The position numbers and the translations under genes were made by a program. The notes beneath the pieces are model-generated. The model was given only the letters and a program-made list of their open reading frames with translations, had not been told where the DNA came from and ran no database searches. Positions 16,738 through 52,276 of a stretch of DNA of 64,000 bases are shown here, in pieces (position 1 is the first letter of the stretch; the number at the start of each line of letters is the position of its first letter). Origin of the DNA: Insolitispirillum peregrinum (GTDB taxonomy: Bacteria; Pseudomonadota; Alphaproteobacteria; Rhodospirillales; Rhodospirillaceae); the NCBI RefSeq assembly GCF_900156605.1, contig NZ_FTOA01000003.1, forward strand, positions 372,001 to 436,000, read 5' to 3'.

Positions 16738-16759
16738 GATGACCTATCCTTCAGCGTTA

Positions 16760-16935
16760 CACTACACGACAGCGAGATGACAGGGACGCGGAGCGCTGCT
16801 CCACACCTCGCCGGGGCCTTGAGGCCCCGGACCCCATTTATTGAAATTCAAAGAAAAAACGGGGGTTTGGGGGCATCGCACCCAAACAGGTATGGACGGT
16901 AGCCCATTATTGCTTTCCTGCTGTCGTGTACTGTG
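16760..16935. mobile_element. Miniature non-coding element, copy 1 (176 bp)
   Basis: Ends CACTACACGACAGC and GCTGTCGTGTACTGTG form imperfect terminal inverted repeats. Inside are palindromes GGAGCGCTGCTCC and GGGGCCTTGAGGCCCC, then GACCCCATT, an A-rich stretch and GGGGGTTTGGGGG. It aligns along its whole length with the element at 40984-41162 in the opposite orientation. No open frame of note. It sits between sufT and sufA inside the suf operon. No clear target duplication here, suggesting an older insertion. Confidence 0.75.
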
Positions 16936-36497: not shown

Positions 36498-37448
36498 CTA
36501 TTGCTTGGCGGCGATGAGATCAGCGGTGCCTTGCCCGAGGGCGAAGGTGTATTCATACGAGGTGTGATGGAACCGCTTGTCGGAATGGCCGACGTGGACC
36601 GAAATGCCAAAGGTATAGGGCTTGCCTTCGACCAGCGGACGCCACGGCGCCGGAGCGGCCAGCGGACGCTGCATCACCACCGTCCAGGTGCCATCGGCAT
36701 AGCTGGCGGTCGAGGTCAATTGTCCCGGCAGTTCGGCGCGGGTATCAAAAATCTCGCCACCGATGGCTTCGGCCTTGTTCGGCGGGGTCAGGCGGGCCTG
36801 CCACCATTCCTGCATGTAACCGGCAGCCTTCAGTTCGGCCAGATCGGCATCGGGCTTCAGGGCATCGCCGCCACCGGCGCGGGTCAGCTTGGCGCGGGTC
36901 TTCATCAGGTATTTGGTGCGGTTGGCACCGTTGGCGGTGGGCATCGAGCTGTTGTCTTCGTGGCAACTGGCCCAGCAGCCAGCGCGCACGCCTTCCTTGA
37001 CCGCTTCATCGTTAAAGATGATCGCCACCTTGGTCGGGGCCTTGGGGTCCATCCTGGTATCGGGCGAGGCCGGTTCCTTGAACTGGAAGCGGATATAGAA
37101 CGCGCTGGCGTCATAGGCCATCTTGACGTTCGACACCACATGGCCGGGGAAGCTGGGGATCGGGGTTGGTTCGGCTTTTTTGCCCGACACCATCAGGTCG
37201 CCCTGGGTCTTTTCTTCGCCAGCATGGCAGGCAATGCAGTTCTTGCCCGCCTTGAATTTATCGGCGGCGGAATGGTCGGCGGTGGTCAGGTTCCATTCCC
37301 ACGACGTTTGTCCGGGATAGAGCATCACGATGTCCTTGCCCGGCACGCTGGACCAGTCGATGGCCAGCGCGGGCGAGGCGAATGCGACCGGAGCCGCTGC
37401 CAGCAGGAGGCCGCTCGCGCTGTATTTGAGAAGATCAGTGATGTTCAT
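36498..37448 (-). CDS. Ethylbenzene-dehydrogenase-related heme-binding protein with an added c-heme site
   Basis: Periplasmic protein of about 316 residues; signal peptide ends near SPALA|ID (29). It has one canonical CXXCH (CIACH, 71-75) and a second CWASCH at 158-163, which has three residues between the cysteines. The body (PGHVVSNVKMAYDASAFYIRFQFKEP and the C-terminal PYTFGISVHVGHSDKRFHHTSYEYTFALG) fits the EB_dh/cytochrome c-552-DMSO-reductase-like domain, the heme b-binding gamma subunit fold. Between the inner-membrane fusion protein and the decaheme wire, so a periplasmic electron carrier is likely. ATG 37466 is an alternative start. Ends 8 bp before the decaheme gene. Confidence 0.8.
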   Translation of the reverse strand: MNITDLLKYSASGLLLAAAPVAFASPALAIDWSSVPGKDIVMLYPGQTSWEWNLTTADHSAADKFKAGKNCIACHAGEEKTQGDLMVSGKKAEPTPIPSFPGHVVSNVKMAYDASAFYIRFQFKEPASPDTRMDPKAPTKVAIIFNDEAVKEGVRAGCWASCHEDNSSMPTANGANRTKYLMKTRAKLTRAGGGDALKPDADLAELKAAGYMQEWWQARLTPPNKAEAIGGEIFDTRAELPGQLTSTASYADGTWTVVMQRPLAAPAPWRPLVEGKPYTFGISVHVGHSDKRFHHTSYEYTFALGQGTADLIAAKQ

Positions 37449-39480
37449 TTGCACAACCTCTGTCAAAAAAAGCCGAACGGATGCGAAACGCAGGACGCCC
37501 CGCTGGAGTCAGGGAGTTCGGACTAAAGGATTTCTGTTCAGGACCTGACCGGATGGAGAGCGGGCGCATGGCCCGGCGTTTTTTCCACCACACAAACGGC
37601 GCGTGGCTGAGGTGATGGAGCAGGTAGCAGGTGACCAGCACCGCAAAGGCCATGTGCGCCAGCGCGACCCAGGCGGTGGAGCGGACGGCGGCAAACTGGT
37701 GCGGGATCAGCTCGGGCCACCAGAACACCAACCCGCTGGCGACGATCAACGGGACAAAGGCGAACATCGCCACGCTGTCGAGGCTCCACGACCAGCGGCG
37801 CTGGTAGATCAGGGTCAGGGCGATGAACACCAGAAAGCCGACACTGACTGCCAGCCCGGACCATTCATGCAGGTCCGCCGACCATTCGATGCCGACCAGA
37901 TTGAACGGCGAGTGCGGGAAGTGCAGCGCCAGTCCGGTGAGCAGCAGCAGGCTCATCAGGGTTGAATGCACCCGGTGCCACCAGGTGAAGCCCCGCCGCA
38001 TGGCATGGGTGCGCTGTTCGAGGGCGGCAATCTCGGCGCTGCTGTCGCGTCCGAGGGTTTCGTCCAGCAGGCGGGCCAACTGCGGCACGCACTGCCCGCA
38101 GGTGGCCCCGGCGCGGGTGGCGGTGGTCAGTTGCGGGACGGTGGTCAGCCCCTGATCGCGGATGGCCGCTTGCAGGCTGTCACGGGTGAGGGCGGCGCAC
38201 TGGCAGATGATCATCTCGCCGCTGGTGGCCTCGACCGCTCCGTGCAGAACCGACCGCTCGCACAGGTGGCCGACATCGCTGCCGCTGGCGATCCAGTGGC
38301 TGAGCTGGCTGCTGTTGCCGGTTTCGCCGATCAGCACCGCCGACAGCACCCGACCGGCGTGCAGCACCACCTTTTTATAAATGCCCTCGTCCGGCTGGTG
38401 GTGGACCAGCGGGCGGCGTTCGGGGTGGTCTTCGTCCGGGGCGGCTTCCCCGCCACAGAACACCGCCAGCGAGGGGATTTTCAGCACGGTGGACTGCGCG
38501 GCAACTGTGAACGGGGCGGGGGTACCGTCGTGCAGAACCTCGGCCAGAACGGTCGCCATGTCGTACAGCGGGCGGACCAGCCCAAAGGTCTGGCCGTCGA
38601 ATTCGACGCATTCGCCCAAGGCAAAAATGCCGGGGTGCGAGGTGCGCAGATGGCCATCCACCAGCACGCCGCGCCCGACGTTCAGACCACAGTCTGCCGC
38701 CAGCGCGGTATGGGGCCGGATGCCGACCGCCACCACCACCAGATCGGCGGGCAGCGTCTCGCCCGAGGTCAGGGCAACCCCTTGCACCCTGCCGTCACCG
38801 TGCAGGGCGCTGGCCTGAGTGTCCGTCAGGCAGCGGATGCCGTGGCGGTCCAGATGATCGGCAATCATCGTGCCGGCGGTGGCATCGACCAGTCGTTCCA
38901 TCAGGGTGGCGGCCATGTGCACCACCGTGACATCCATCCCGCGCTGCTTCAGGCCCCAGGCGGCTTCCAGCCCCAGCACTCCGCCGCCGATCACCACCGC
39001 GTGCCGGTGCTGTTGTGCCGCCGCCAGCATCGCTTCGACATCGCGCAGCGAGCGGAAACTGACCACATTGCCCAGCCCGATCCCCGGCAGCGGCGGCATG
39101 ATGGCATCGGCTCCGGTGGCCAGCACCAGCCGGTCCCAGCGGTCCGTATGACCGCTGGCGGTGCGCAGGCTGCCGCCCTGCTGATGGGCGTCCGGGGAGC
39201 TGTGGTCGGGCAGGATATGCACCACCGCATCGCCTTGATGCAGGGTGATGCCGCGCTCGGCATACCATGACGCCGGGTGCGTATGGATTTGCTCGGGGCT
39301 TTTGTCTCCGGCCAGCAGCGACGACAGATGGACGCGGTTATAACCCGCCACCGGCTCGGCGCCAAAAACGCTGATGCGGAAGGACCGGGTTGGCTGGCTG
39401 GTCAGCAGTTCCAGCAGGCGAACCGCCGCCATGCCGTTTCCGACCACCACCAGATGCGGTAAAGACGCAGGCGTGCTCAT
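37435..39480 (-). CDS. Fusion: NirB-like FAD oxidoreductase + BFD-type [2Fe-2S] + cytochrome b membrane domain
   Basis: Protein of 681 residues. Residues 8-400 are a pyridine-nucleotide-disulfide-type flavoprotein: FAD motif VVVGNGMAAV (11-20), NAD(P) motif VVIGGGVLGLEAA (162-174) and the FAD-contact LGECVEFDG (about 288). Residues 424-470 are a BFD-like domain with Cys426, Cys428, Cys461 and Cys464. Residues 500-630 hold about four transmembrane helices with paired histidines (His502, 505, 520, 538, 609, 622, 623) suited to heme b, like cytochrome b561. No sulfite/nitrite reductase domain follows. Predicted to move electrons between NAD(P)H and the periplasmic cytochromes encoded beside it. 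ATG overlaps the heptaheme stop (TGATG); its end overlaps the next gene. Confidence 0.82.
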   Translation of the reverse strand: MSTPASLPHLVVVGNGMAAVRLLELLTSQPTRSFRISVFGAEPVAGYNRVHLSSLLAGDKSPEQIHTHPASWYAERGITLHQGDAVVHILPDHSSPDAHQQGGSLRTASGHTDRWDRLVLATGADAIMPPLPGIGLGNVVSFRSLRDVEAMLAAAQQHRHAVVIGGGVLGLEAAWGLKQRGMDVTVVHMAATLMERLVDATAGTMIADHLDRHGIRCLTDTQASALHGDGRVQGVALTSGETLPADLVVVAVGIRPHTALAADCGLNVGRGVLVDGHLRTSHPGIFALGECVEFDGQTFGLVRPLYDMATVLAEVLHDGTPAPFTVAAQSTVLKIPSLAVFCGGEAAPDEDHPERRPLVHHQPDEGIYKKVVLHAGRVLSAVLIGETGNSSQLSHWIASGSDVGHLCERSVLHGAVEATSGEMIICQCAALTRDSLQAAIRDQGLTTVPQLTTATRAGATCGQCVPQLARLLDETLGRDSSAEIAALEQRTHAMRRGFTWWHRVHSTLMSLLLLTGLALHFPHSPFNLVGIEWSADLHEWSGLAVSVGFLVFIALTLIYQRRWSWSLDSVAMFAFVPLIVASGLVFWWPELIPHQFAAVRSTAWVALAHMAFAVLVTCYLLHHLSHAPFVWWKKRRAMRPLSIRSGPEQKSFSPNSLTPAGRPAFRIRSAFFDRGCANEHH

Positions 39481-40553
39481 CAGCGGTCCTCCCTGTGGGA
39501 TGCCGGTGGGGTGGATGCAGGGGGCGACCGGCGCAGGCGACGCCACAGCAGGCGCAGCAGGATGGCCACCGCCGTCAGGCTGACCAGCGCCAGTGCCGAC
39601 AGTTCCAGCCACTGGTTGCGGTTGGCCCCCATCACATAGATTTCGCCCAGCCATGGCGCGTTGCGGAACCCGCCCCAGCCGTCATCGCTGTCGCGCAGCA
39701 TTTTCTTGTACAGACGCTTGCCCAGTTCACCGTCGTCGCTGTGACAGGCGGCGCAGTCGCGGACGGCCTTTTCCTTTGGCAGCACGGTGTGCGACAGGGT
39801 CAGTTCGGGAACCGGCGTGTGGCAGTCCATGCAGCGCACCTGCGCAAAGTGCAGGTCCTGTTCCGGCAGCCAGTCATGGGCAACCGCCATGTCCGGTCGC
39901 TTGTCCTTCGGTTTCCACTTGGCGTAGGTGGCGTCATCACCATGGCAGGTCAGGCACTGGGTGTTGTCCTGTTCGGTGGCCATGTGTGCCGAGCCGATTT
40001 TCGACGCCTTTTTCATGATGTGGGCTTCGTGGCACGACAGGCAGGTGAAGCTGGCCCCCAGTTCCTTGAAATGGACCGAAGCCTTGAATTCCGGCTCGAT
40101 GATTTTGGCCGGTTGCTGGTGGCACTCGATGCAGCCCTTGATCTTTTCTTTGGCCTTGGGCAGGTGCGGATAGGGCACATAGGCCTCGGTGTGGCAATCC
40201 TTGCAGGCCATCTTGCCGTGGTCGCCCATCTCGAAGCGGTGGGCGTCCTGGGTCAGGGTTGCCAGCAGCTTCAGGTCCATCCCGGCGCGCGGCGGGTTTT
40301 TCACCCCGTCCTCGCTGTGGCAGGACAGGCAGTCGGCGTTCCACTTCCTGATTTTGGCTGGCAGCTCCGGGTCGGCTTCGGTCAGGCCGAAGTCATCGCC
40401 GCCGCTGAAATCATCGCTGGCGGCCTCTTCGGCGCGGGCGGGCGCACTGCCAAACCCCTGCGGCAGCCCGCTGATCAGCAGGGTTGCCAGCAGAAAAAAG
40501 GCAACAAAAAAGGGTTTCGGCGCGATGCGCCGAAGGCGAAAGCCCTGAATCAC
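39480..40553 (-). CDS. Heptaheme c-type cytochrome with C-terminal membrane anchor
   Basis: Protein of 357 residues starting with GTG, 9 bases after GGGG. The signal peptide (about 15-41, APARA|EE) is followed by an Asp/Glu-rich start, then seven CXXCH sites (CLSCH, CKDCH, CIECH, CLSCH, CLTCH, CMDCH, CAACH) and a C-terminal helix (about 312-336) ending in basic residues, which would leave the hemes in the periplasm. It may act as the quinol- or heme b-linked acceptor that feeds the decaheme wire, in the position CymA or NrfH occupies elsewhere, but it is not an NrfH homologue by eye. First gene of the five-gene operon. Confidence 0.85.
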   Translation of the reverse strand: MIQGFRLRRIAPKPFFVAFFLLATLLISGLPQGFGSAPARAEEAASDDFSGGDDFGLTEADPELPAKIRKWNADCLSCHSEDGVKNPPRAGMDLKLLATLTQDAHRFEMGDHGKMACKDCHTEAYVPYPHLPKAKEKIKGCIECHQQPAKIIEPEFKASVHFKELGASFTCLSCHEAHIMKKASKIGSAHMATEQDNTQCLTCHGDDATYAKWKPKDKRPDMAVAHDWLPEQDLHFAQVRCMDCHTPVPELTLSHTVLPKEKAVRDCAACHSDDGELGKRLYKKMLRDSDDGWGGFRNAPWLGEIYVMGANRNQWLELSALALVSLTAVAILLRLLWRRLRRSPPASTPPASHREDR

Positions 40554-40927: not shown

Positions 40928-40983
40928 CCCGAGTTCCATATGCTTGCCAATAGTACTAGAGCCGTGAGCGTTAAACCTGACGC

Positions 40984-41162
40984 CACAATACCCGACAGTT
41001 TGAAAACAAAAGCGGGCTGCCGCCCGGACCTGCTCGGGGCCTGAGGCCCCGAACCCCCATTTTTTCTTTTATAATCAAAGGAATGGGGTCTGGGGCCTTA
41101 AGGCCCCAGCGAGGTGTGGAGCAGCGCTCCACGGTCTTGCTTTCCTGCTGTCATGTCGTGTG
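40984..41162. mobile_element. Miniature non-coding element, copy 2 (179 bp), with 9-bp target duplication
   Basis: Inverted ends CACAATACCCGACAG and CTGTCATGTCGTGTG; direct 9-bp repeats ACCTGACGC flank it at 40975-40983 and 41163-41171. Internally it matches copy 1 in reverse: GGGGCCTTAAGGCCCC, GGAGCAGCGCTCC and CGGGGCCTGAGGCCCCG. The flanks (TTAAACCTGACGC and CTGACGCAGGCACGCTGCTCTAA) are the two halves of the palindromic repeat seen intact at 48241-48284. No transposase frame, so it would need a transposase in trans. Confidence 0.82.
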
Positions 41163-41218
41163 ACCTGACGCAGGCACGCTGCTCTAACCTTCTGTTCTGT
41201 CGCATTGTTCCGTGCGGA

Positions 41219-42898
41219 TTAGCGATGAACCGGCTTGTACTTGATGCGGTGCGGCTGGTCGGCATCGGCCCCCAGACGGCGCTTCTTGTCGGCTTCGTAG
41301 TCCTGGAAGTTGCCTTCGAACCACTCGACGTGGGAATCGCCTTCATAGGCCATGATGTGGGTGGCAATACGGTCGAGGAACCAGCGATCGTGGGAGATGA
41401 CCACGGCGCAGCCCGGGAAGTCGAGCAGGGCGTCTTCCAGCGCACGCAGGGTGTCAACGTCAAGGTCGTTGGTCGGTTCGTCAAGCAGCAGGACGTTGGC
41501 GCCGGACTTCAGCATCTTGGCCAGATGGACGCGGTTGCGTTCCCCACCGGACAACTGGCCGACCTTTTTCTGCTGGTCGCCACCCTTGAAGTTGAACGAG
41601 CCGACATAGGCGCGCGACTGGATCTTGCGCTTGCCGAGGTCGATTTCGTCCTGACCGTCCGAGATTTCGTCCCACACGGTCTTGTTGTCGTCCAGCGCAT
41701 CGCGGCTCTGGTCGATGTAGCCGAGGCTGACGGTCTCCCCGACGCGGATCGAGCCGGCATCGGGGGTTTCCGCGCCGGTCAACAGCTTGAACAGGGTGGT
41801 TTTACCGGCACCGTTCGGGCCGATCACGCCGACGATGCCGCCCGGCGGCAGACGGAAGGTCAGGTTTTCAAACAGCAGGCGATCGCCAAAGGACTTGGTC
41901 AGGTTTTCGGCCTCGATCACCACGTTGCCGAGGCGCTCGGGGGTCGGGATGACGATCTGGGCGGTACCGGGGGCCTTGTCGTTGGACTTGGCAACCAGAT
42001 CCTCGAAGGCGGTGATACGGGCCTTCTGCTTGGCCTGACGGCCCTTGGGGTTGGCGCGGATCCAGTCGAGTTCCTGGGTGATGATGCGCTGACGGGCGTC
42101 TTCTTCGCGCGATTCCTGTTCCAGACGCTTCTGCTTCTGCTCCAGCCATGCCGAGTAGTTGCCCTCGTAGGGGATGGCGCGGCCACGGTCCAGTTCCAGA
42201 ATCCAGCTGGTGACGTTGTCGAGGAAGTAACGATCGTGGGTAACGGCGACCACGGTGCCTTCGTACTCTTCGAGGAACCGTTCCAGCCAGAACACGCTTT
42301 CGGCGTCGAGGTGGTTGGTCGGTTCGTCAAGCAGCAGCATGTCCGGGCGCGACAGCAGCAGGCGGGCCAGCGCCACGCGGCGGCGTTCCCCACCGGACAG
42401 CTTGGTCACGTCGGCATCGCCATCGGGACAGCGCAGGGCGTCCATGGCGATTTCGACCTTGCGTTCGACATCCCAGCCGTCGCAGGCGTCGATCTTTTCC
42501 TGCAGGTCGCCCTGTTCGGCGATCAGGTCGTTCATCTCGTCGTCGCTCAGCTCTTCGGCAAAGCGGGCAGAGACTTCATCGAAACGCTGGCGCAGGCCAA
42601 AGACCTCGCCCGCGCCTTCCATGACGTTCTCGAGCACGGTCTTGTTCGGATCGAGCTGGGGTTCCTGCGGCAGATAGCCGACCTTGACGCCTTCGGCGGC
42701 ACGGGCTTCACCGCTGAATTCCTTGTCCCAGCCAGCCATGATGCGCAGCAGGGTCGATTTACCGGCGCCGTTGTAGCCGAGCACACCGATCTTCGCCCCC
42801 GGCAGGAACGACAGATGAACCCCTTCCACAACCTTGCGGCCACCAGGGTAAACCTTGGTCAGATCGCGCATGGTGTAGATGTACTGGTAGGCGGCCAT
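41219..42898 (-). CDS. ettA: Energy-dependent translational throttle protein EttA
   Basis: ABC-F protein of 559 residues that gates the ribosome according to ATP level. Two ATPase halves: Walker [15 protein letters not shown] and [14 protein letters not shown], signatures [16 protein letters not shown] and [15 protein letters not shown], joined by a charged linker ([18 protein letters not shown]). The N-terminus [23 protein letters not shown] is the EttA type. Start ATG 42898 after GGAGG. Single gene. Confidence 0.96.
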
Positions 42899-48240: not shown

Positions 48241-48345
48241 TTAGAGCAGCGTGCGTTAAATCTGACGCAGGCACGCTGCTCTAACCTTTTGTCCTGTCGC
48301 ATTGTTGTTGCGAAAACCGGTTCCCACTTTTCGCACAATGCTCTA
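48241..48345. repeat. Composite palindromic repeat, intact copy
   Basis: First hairpin: TTAGAGCAGCGTGC (48241-48254) and its exact complement (48271-48284) around loop GTTAAATCTGACGCAG. Second: GCATTGT..TGCGAAAA and TTTTCGCA..CAATGC (48299-48341) around ACCGGTTCCCAC. The first loop carries the 9-base site into which miniature elements have inserted elsewhere in the window. The right end runs into the stop codon of the next gene. Confidence 0.85.
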
Positions 48346-49392
48346 GCCGAACGTTTCCCCAAACAGCAGGCGCCAGGCATTGCCATAGGCCACCTGCTGG
48401 CGAACGCCGTCGGGCAGCTCGGCGAGGAAGTGGCGCAGGTGACCATCATAGGTGTCGATCTTGTCCAGACGATCCTGCCCCAGATCCAGCGCCGCAACAA
48501 AGCGGCTGGGGTGAGCGGCGATCACATCGCGCCACTCGCTTTTCAGGCTACCACCGTCGTTCCAGACCCGCGCCTGCCGTTGTCCGCTGACCGGATAGAC
48601 CGATTTGGCTGACCCAAAGGCGGTATCGAAATACAGGTTGGGAAAGCGGGTGAGCAGGTCGTTGACATAGGCGGGGGAATAGCGGCTGGCCCGTTCGATA
48701 TAGCGGATTTGTGCCAGATGGCACCAGATCACCGTTGCTTTCGGATAGCGGGCCAGCATCTGCTCCAGGGCGTGCAACAGGGCATCCTCGATTTCATAGT
48801 GAATCTGAAAGGCCAGCCCGGTTTTCTCGCTGAGGGCAAACAGGCTCTCTCCCAGCGGGCCATCCAGCGCAATGGCGCTGTCACGGTCTTCATCGCCGCG
48901 CCTGGCCTGCCGGGGAGAGGGGTAATGGCGGAATTCGTATTCGCCAAACATCAAAATATCATGGCGCTCTGCCGCTGCCTGCTGGGCGGCCAGAAACGGC
49001 GTTGCCTGATCGGTGGTGGCCGGTTCCTGCCCGCCGTTGCCAACCGGGATGAAATGCTGCGGGAATTCCTGTACCAGCCGGGCGGCCAGCGGGTCATACA
49101 GCTCGGGCTGAGCCAGCATCTGGGGGTTGGGGTCTGCCGACAAGGCCATCATACCGATCTTCAGCCGGTCCATGGCGGCGGCAACGGCGGCGGGGTCAAC
49201 CTGCCGGGAGTTGCACGAGCTTTCGAGGTCAATATAGGGCAAGGCCCCGTCCGCCAACAGCCCCTTGAGACGACGGGCGTAGCCATCCTTCAGCGTTTGC
49301 CGCGCTGATGCCGCCATGGCGTGGACGGGCAGCGTGCGCAGAAGGGGAACGGCAGCCAGTCCGGCAAGCAACTGGCGTCTGCTGATGGTCAT
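48343..49392 (-). CDS. Tat-exported amidohydrolase-like protein
   Basis: Protein of 349 residues with a twin-arginine signal (SRRQLLAGLAAVPLLRTLPVHAMA), so it is exported folded and probably binds a cofactor metal. The body looks like a metal-dependent TIM barrel (YIDLESSCNSR, FIPVGNGGQE, FQIHYEIED, VIWCHLAQIRYIERAS, FDTAFGSAKSVYPVSG, ALDLGQDR). Substrate unknown. ATG 49392 follows AGGAG. 84 bp after trxC, last of a hsp20-rpoH-trxC cluster. Confidence 0.7.
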   Translation of the reverse strand: MTISRRQLLAGLAAVPLLRTLPVHAMAASARQTLKDGYARRLKGLLADGALPYIDLESSCNSRQVDPAAVAAAMDRLKIGMMALSADPNPQMLAQPELYDPLAARLVQEFPQHFIPVGNGGQEPATTDQATPFLAAQQAAAERHDILMFGEYEFRHYPSPRQARRGDEDRDSAIALDGPLGESLFALSEKTGLAFQIHYEIEDALLHALEQMLARYPKATVIWCHLAQIRYIERASRYSPAYVNDLLTRFPNLYFDTAFGSAKSVYPVSGQRQARVWNDGGSLKSEWRDVIAAHPSRFVAALDLGQDRLDKIDTYDGHLRHFLAELPDGVRQQVAYGNAWRLLFGETFG

Positions 49393-52054: not shown

Positions 52055-52142
52055 TTAGGGCAGTGAGCGCAAAAGCGGGAACCGGTTTTCGCAAAATCAC
52101 TGCGACAGAACAAAAAGTTAGACCAGCGTGTCTGCGTCAGAT
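52055..52142. repeat. Composite palindromic repeat, copy interrupted by a miniature element
   Basis: Reverse-oriented relative of 48241-48345: GCAGTGA..TCACTGC hairpin (52060-52103) around AAGCGGGAACCGGTTTT, then GCGACAGAACAAAAAGTTAG and ACCAGCGTGTCTGCGTCAGAT. The other arm resumes at 52215 (GCGTCAGATTTTACGCC), after the inserted element. Confidence 0.75.
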
Positions 52143-52214
52143 CACGGTACACGACAGTTGGTGAAGAATGGCAGAGCGCTCCACGGTCTTGTTCCCAAAC
52201 TGTCGTGCACTGTG
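52143..52214. mobile_element. Miniature non-coding element, shortened copy 3 (72 bp), with 9-bp target duplication
   Basis: Ends CACGGTACACGACAGTTGG and CCCAAACTGTCGTGCACTGTG are inverted repeats; direct repeats GCGTCAGAT flank it at 52134-52142 and 52215-52223. The interior (GAGCGCTCCACGGTCTTG) matches one end of copy 2 only, so it is a deletion form. Confidence 0.82.
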
Positions 52215-52276
52215 GCGTCAGATTTTACGCCCCCTGGTTCAGGGGAGCTTGTGGCTGATTTGAAAAAGACAAAAAA

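What the first reader, a model, noticed from the sequence alone, without database searches (positions are those of the whole stretch)
40984..41162. Family of miniature elements inserted at the same 9-bp site in palindromic repeats
Copies at 16760-16935 and 40984-41162 align over ~178 bp in opposite orientation; a 72-bp derivative lies at 52143-52214. Copies 2 and 3 are flanked by 9-bp direct repeats (ACCTGACGC; GCGTCAGAT), both within the loop sequence of the palindrome that is uninterrupted at 48241-48284. That gives an empty site, filled sites and target duplications in one window, which is good evidence for mobility and site preference.
Basis: seen in the sequence. Interest (0 to 1): 0.7.

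Follow-up and report, generated by a model that had tools for sequence, protein, structure and literature searches.

The report
Mobile-element family nested in palindromic repeats
An environmental alphaproteobacterium related to Novispirillum carries well over a hundred copies of a 179-bp gene-less transposon that repeatedly inserted, in both orientations, into the same 9 bases in the loop of another genomic repeat; this is a new family of a known kind of element (MITE) with unusually tight target choice, mostly old and with no helper transposase found.

Summary
The window lies in a 4.64-Mb Rhodospirillales genome (nearest named relative Novispirillum itersonii). In the 2.28 Mb I could read, a 179-bp element ("M") has 182 hits, 59 complete; 65 copies have paired terminal repeats (CACRGTACACGACAG...). 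Flanks match over at least 7 of 9 bp in 34/65 (shifted control 0/65). Of 41 pairs lying in the palindromic repeat "P", 34 occupy exactly P positions 20-28, the loop of its first hairpin, in both orientations (19 vs 15). Left and right duplications co-vary site by site (243 matches vs 212.5±5.0 shuffled, 0/20000), so these are many independent insertions. 67 P copies are uninterrupted at the target. So M is a genuine MITE family with strong target preference. Corrections: copy 1 (16758-16935) has no duplication; the family looks old (copies 65-94% identical, about 21% mismatch between paired duplications); present mobility is not shown; no autonomous parent was found. New: M's hairpin-rich core occurs without the ends in other genera of the family, while the ends are essentially confined to this genome and one metagenomic relative. 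The most novel open reading is targeting of hairpin loops as structures.

The parts
40984..41162 (+). Complete element M (179 bp), reference copy
16758..16935 (-). Complete element M (178 bp), no recognisable target duplication
52143..52214 (+). 72-bp internally deleted M derivative with both terminal inverted repeats
40975..40983 (.). Left 9-bp target duplication ACCTGACGC
41163..41171 (.). Right 9-bp target duplication ACCTGACGC
52134..52142 (.). Left 9-bp target duplication GCGTCAGAT
52215..52223 (.). Right 9-bp target duplication GCGTCAGAT
40984..40999 (+). Left terminal inverted repeat of M (family consensus CACRGTACACGACAGT)
41147..41162 (-). Right terminal inverted repeat of M
41013..41131 (+). 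Quasi-palindromic core of M: hairpins A (41013-41026), B (41034-41052), C (41090-41109) and D (41117-41131); related core found without the ends in other genera
48241..48346 (+). Repeat P, uninterrupted (empty target); 9-bp target ATCTGACGC is in the loop of the first hairpin (48241-48284)
40957..40983 (+). Left part of the P-type repeat interrupted by M
41163..41241 (+). Right part of the P repeat interrupted by M, reaching the 3' end of the ettA gene
52057..52142 (-). Larger part of the P repeat interrupted by the 72-bp derivative
41219..42898 (-). ettA (energy-dependent translational throttle protein), neighbouring gene; M lies 56 bp beyond its 3' end

Best explanation
M is a MITE: a non-autonomous DNA transposon of about 179 bp with 15-16-bp terminal inverted repeats and 9-bp target duplications, moved in the past by a transposase acting in trans. 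It has a strong preference for one 9-bp segment in the loop of the first hairpin of an abundant 105-bp palindromic repeat, P, and inserted there many times independently in either orientation. SHOWN: ends, duplications, precise shared target, independence of insertions, empty and filled sites, and conserved internal hairpins with compensatory changes. INFERRED: mobilisation by a DDE transposase (from the 9-bp duplication and inverted ends); origin by attachment of transposon ends to a hairpin core that already existed in the bacterial family; present inactivity, because copies and duplications have diverged and no parent is found. A likely benefit of the preference is safe insertion in intergenic DNA.
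For: 65 paired-end elements in 2.28 Mb, 37 of them 178-180 bp; flanks match at 7 or more of 9 in 34/65, shifted control 0/65. 34 of 41 insertions in P context lie at P20-28, 19 in one orientation and 15 in the other; paired duplications co-vary (243 vs 212.5±5.0, 0/20000); 9 are identical, of 6 different sequences. The 9-mers at empty P sites are largely the same set: ACCGGACGC, ACCTGACGC, ATCTGACGC, ATCGGACGC. 67 P copies span the target uninterrupted. Ends are far more conserved than the adjacent arms (0.95 and 0.87 vs 0.65 and 0.71). Elements avoid long ORFs (38% inside an ORF of 200 aa or more vs 88% of random points). Terminal-repeat excess in this genome only; P uninterrupted in another genus.
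Against: No autonomous parent: none with matching ends in the 2.28 Mb read; genome-wide no PF00872 or PF03400 match and only PF01609 matches at two loci without these ends. But half the genome was not read base by base and six short contigs are masked. Some copies lack duplications or have mosaic flanks, including 40984. No clean orthologous empty site: at the one locus comparable with a close relative both carry M.
Confidence: 0.9

Rival explanations
1. P and M form one composite repeat that spread as a unit after a single insertion; the shared position and the direct repeats are inherited, not evidence of target choice.
For: Most complete copies carry P on both sides, and alignments of about 290 bp run through P and M together.
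Against: M lies in both orientations within P (19 vs 15); duplications vary between sites but agree within sites (0/20000 shuffles); 67 empty P copies; insertions also in the second P hairpin, in variant palindromes and inside another M.
Confidence: 0.04
2. M is mainly a conserved structured RNA or DNA signal kept by selection, such as a terminator or mRNA stabiliser, and mobility is incidental.
For: Very stable fold (z -7.3); 54 cells with compensatory changes vs 18.8±3.2 shuffled; mainly between genes; core shared by 8 of 23 genera.
Against: It does not explain terminal repeats more conserved than the adjacent arms, 9-bp duplications, a fixed target and both orientations; no Rfam family reaches its threshold. 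Both can be true: the core may have a role, the ends make it mobile.
Confidence: 0.15
3. The unknown transposase recognises DNA hairpins or cruciform loops as structures, and P is simply the commonest such hairpin. (A refinement of the best explanation, not an alternative to the element being a MITE.)
For: The target is a hairpin loop. Most off-target copies with good duplications also sit in palindromes: P hairpin 2 (AAAAGTGGG), variant hairpins (ATGTGACTC, GGTTCACAT) and a hairpin of another M (GGGGCCGGG).
Against: Most targets share the sequence RYSKGACGC, so sequence recognition alone explains most data; exceptions are few and the hairpin comparison is dominated by P itself.
Confidence: 0.3

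Closest known systems
Bacterial MITEs with 9-bp duplications, e.g. MITEAba12 of Acinetobacter (PMC6382973)
   Same: 113 bp, 16-bp imperfect inverted ends, 9-bp target duplications, no gene
   Different: AT-rich, has a resident parent (ISAba12), no sequence trend in its targets; M is GC-rich, has no parent found and one dominant target
QMITE2 of Coxiella burnetii (PMC5896051, PMC10969869)
   Same: 150-190 bp, long inverted ends, 7-11-nt direct repeats, very stable fold, link between a MITE and palindromic repeats
   Different: There the MITE contains a palindrome that is the target of an insertion sequence (IS1111); here the MITE inserts into a palindromic repeat. No sequence relation was tested
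IS711 and the Bru-RS palindromic repeats of Brucella (PMC2266754)
   Same: A mobile element preferring dispersed palindromic repeats in an alphaproteobacterium
   Different: IS711 is autonomous and duplicates TA; M is non-autonomous and duplicates 9 bp
REP dimers inserted in longer palindromes (PMC3733652)
   Same: One small repeat nested at a fixed place in another palindrome
   Different: REPs lack the MITE ends and 9-bp duplications described here
Rhizobium intergenic mosaic elements (RIME; cited in PMC2573895)
   Same: From memory, P's second hairpin resembles RIME-like repeats; its 72-92 segment occurs exactly in several other genera of the family
   Different: Membership of P in RIME was not tested

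Membership tests
MITE | Short, non-coding, under 500 bp | tested here: met
   Modal length 178-179 bp, too short for a transposase
MITE | Terminal inverted repeats | tested here: met
   16-bp ends, 90% of cells paired over 30 copies, more conserved than adjacent arms
MITE | Target-site duplication | tested here: met
   7 or more of 9 bp in 34/65, control 0/65; duplications co-vary within sites
MITE | High copy number, mostly between genes | tested here: met
   182 hits in 49% of the genome; depleted inside long ORFs
MITE | Ends shared with an autonomous parent element | tested here: inconclusive
   None found, but half of the genome was unread and six short contigs are masked
MITE | Mobility in trans by a transposase | not testable with these tools
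   Needs a transposition assay
QMITE2 | Sequence homology to QMITE2 | not tested
   QMITE2 sequence not at hand; compared from the papers' descriptions only
RIME (for repeat P) | Homology to rhizobial mosaic elements | not tested
   Resemblance from memory only
Known structured RNA (Rfam) | Match at or above gathering score | tested here: not met
   No match in the window at gathering score; only sub-threshold microRNA-type hairpins at M

The most novel reading that the evidence does not exclude
A DDE-type system that chooses hairpin or cruciform loops as targets, so that a MITE is seeded into a genome-wide array of palindromic repeats and can itself become a target, using a structured core taken from another family-wide repeat.
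Probability: 0.25. Interest if true: 0.7.

Novelty: new member of a known kind. Interest (0 to 1): 0.45.

Why it matters
It gives an unusually clear natural data set (dozens of filled sites with duplications, 67 empty sites, two orientations, one 9-bp target) for how mobile DNA picks a safe harbour between genes, and suggests how new MITEs may arise when transposon ends enclose an older structured repeat. It also explains much of the repeat landscape of this bacterial lineage.

Tried and rejected
Autonomous element: paired ends 0.4-8 kb apart with duplications gave nothing convincing; the best candidate (C17:353570-354961) is two M copies around an apparently ordinary gene that reads like a hemerythrin-type protein (by eye). 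Small contigs C1, C5, C6, C7, C24 and C25 are masked. The 23-mer end is absent from 84,980 species genomes; M is absent from plasmids. The orthologous locus in a metagenomic relative (L342, 90-95% identical) carries M in P too, of another M subfamily, so it is no empty site. Synteny at ettA with N. itersonii is not conserved. Rfam: nothing above threshold.

Full report
WHERE. The window is G000:C15:372001-436000 of a 4.64-Mb, 25-contig assembly. The nearest named relative by the EttA protein (89%) is Novispirillum itersonii, Rhodospirillales. GC of the sampled DNA is 61.5%. No other genome of the same genus was among the relatives listed.

OBSERVATION. The three copies and the uninterrupted palindrome are as described. 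BLAST against the whole genome scored the best 40 of 310 first-look candidates, and all 40 were strong matches. Reading 2.28 Mb (49%) in stretches gave 182 hits to an M profile at E<1e-5, 59 of them complete. Terminal 15-mers with up to 2 mismatches: 286 vs 21 in the reversed control; 40 relatives are at or near control level.

ANATOMY OF M. Modal length 178-179 bp; outermost 16 bp inverted; variable arms; then four hairpins A-B-loop-C-D in a quasi-palindrome. Over 30 copies 94.1% of the proposed pairs are standard (slid controls 32-44%), with 54 compensatory cells vs 18.8±3.2 in shuffles. Paired-end forms of 72, 80, 122-123, 166-172 and 195-206 bp also occur; profile matches suggest internal deletions and partial duplications.

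TARGET. P is a 105-bp repeat with two hairpins. Removing M and one 9-mer restores P. Of 41 paired elements in P context, 34 join at P20-28, in both relative orientations (19/15); two more are off by one. Left and right 9-mers match at 243 of 306 positions, shuffles 212.5±5.0, 0/20000. Nine identical pairs of six different sequences imply several separate events; together with the two orientations this excludes a single composite ancestor. P copies spanning the target: 67. P-like empty repeats exist in another genus (G013) and on a metagenomic contig (L343), so P can exist without M.

EXCEPTIONS. Copies with good duplications outside P20-28 lie in P's second hairpin (C17:501795), variant palindromes (C16:5253, C17:507622), a shifted loop (C4:180037) and a hairpin of another M (C4:561446, GGGGCCGGG 9/9). 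This hints at structure-guided targeting but does not prove it. At 40984 the two flanking half-hairpins are of different subtypes, so recombination between copies has probably occurred there.

AGE. Thirty complete copies share 78% identity on average (65-94%), and paired duplications differ at about 21% of positions (63/306). Activity is therefore mostly old. No parent was found; families covering the usual 9-bp-duplicating transposases were searched genome-wide only in part: PF01609 (two loci with other ends), PF00872 and PF03400 (none).

DISTRIBUTION. In 73 genomes of the family (23 genera) the M query matches in 15 genomes of 8 genera, this genome included; everywhere but in this genome the match starts inside the element (position 21 or later), i.e. 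only the core is shared. One single, diverged, complete-looking copy occurs in G007 (179 bp, 7/9 flank match). N. itersonii has tandem arrays of 182- and 187-bp units that contain half of the core. A metagenomic relative (L342) has M in P. Inference: transposon ends joined to an older core.

MECHANISM. Shown: terminal repeats, duplications, site precision, independence, empty sites. Inferred: DDE transposase in trans; preference for the loop sequence, perhaps helped by its hairpin. The preference places copies mainly between genes (38% vs 88% inside ORFs of 200 aa or more).

KNOWN KINDS. It meets the MITE criteria except that its parent is unknown. Precedents exist for insertion sequences preferring palindromic repeats (IS711 in Bru-RS, PMC2266754; IS1111 in the QMITE2 palindrome, PMC5896051) and for nested palindromes (PMC3733652). 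Verdict: a new family of a known kind, notable for target precision and for its apparently borrowed core.

Noticed in passing
L252 1503-2401 (N. itersonii): Tandem array, 4.9 copies of a 182-bp unit containing part of M's core; a second array of 187-bp units in L255 1311-1851.
   Followed up: partly
L342 1-220; C17:402147-402200: A further palindromic repeat (TTAGAGCATTTTCAAGTTGACC...) nested next to P and M, on different sides of M at orthologous loci of two relatives; the two M copies are of different subfamilies, suggesting conversion or repeated insertion.
   Followed up: partly
G000 contigs C1, C5, C6, C7, C24, C25: Six contigs of 1.5-2.1 kb read as N (masked); they might be collapsed multi-copy sequences such as insertion sequences.
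   Followed up: no
window 37435-40553: Genes related to nitrite reductase large subunit (NirB-like) and multihaem cytochrome c, near the M copy at 40984.
   Followed up: no
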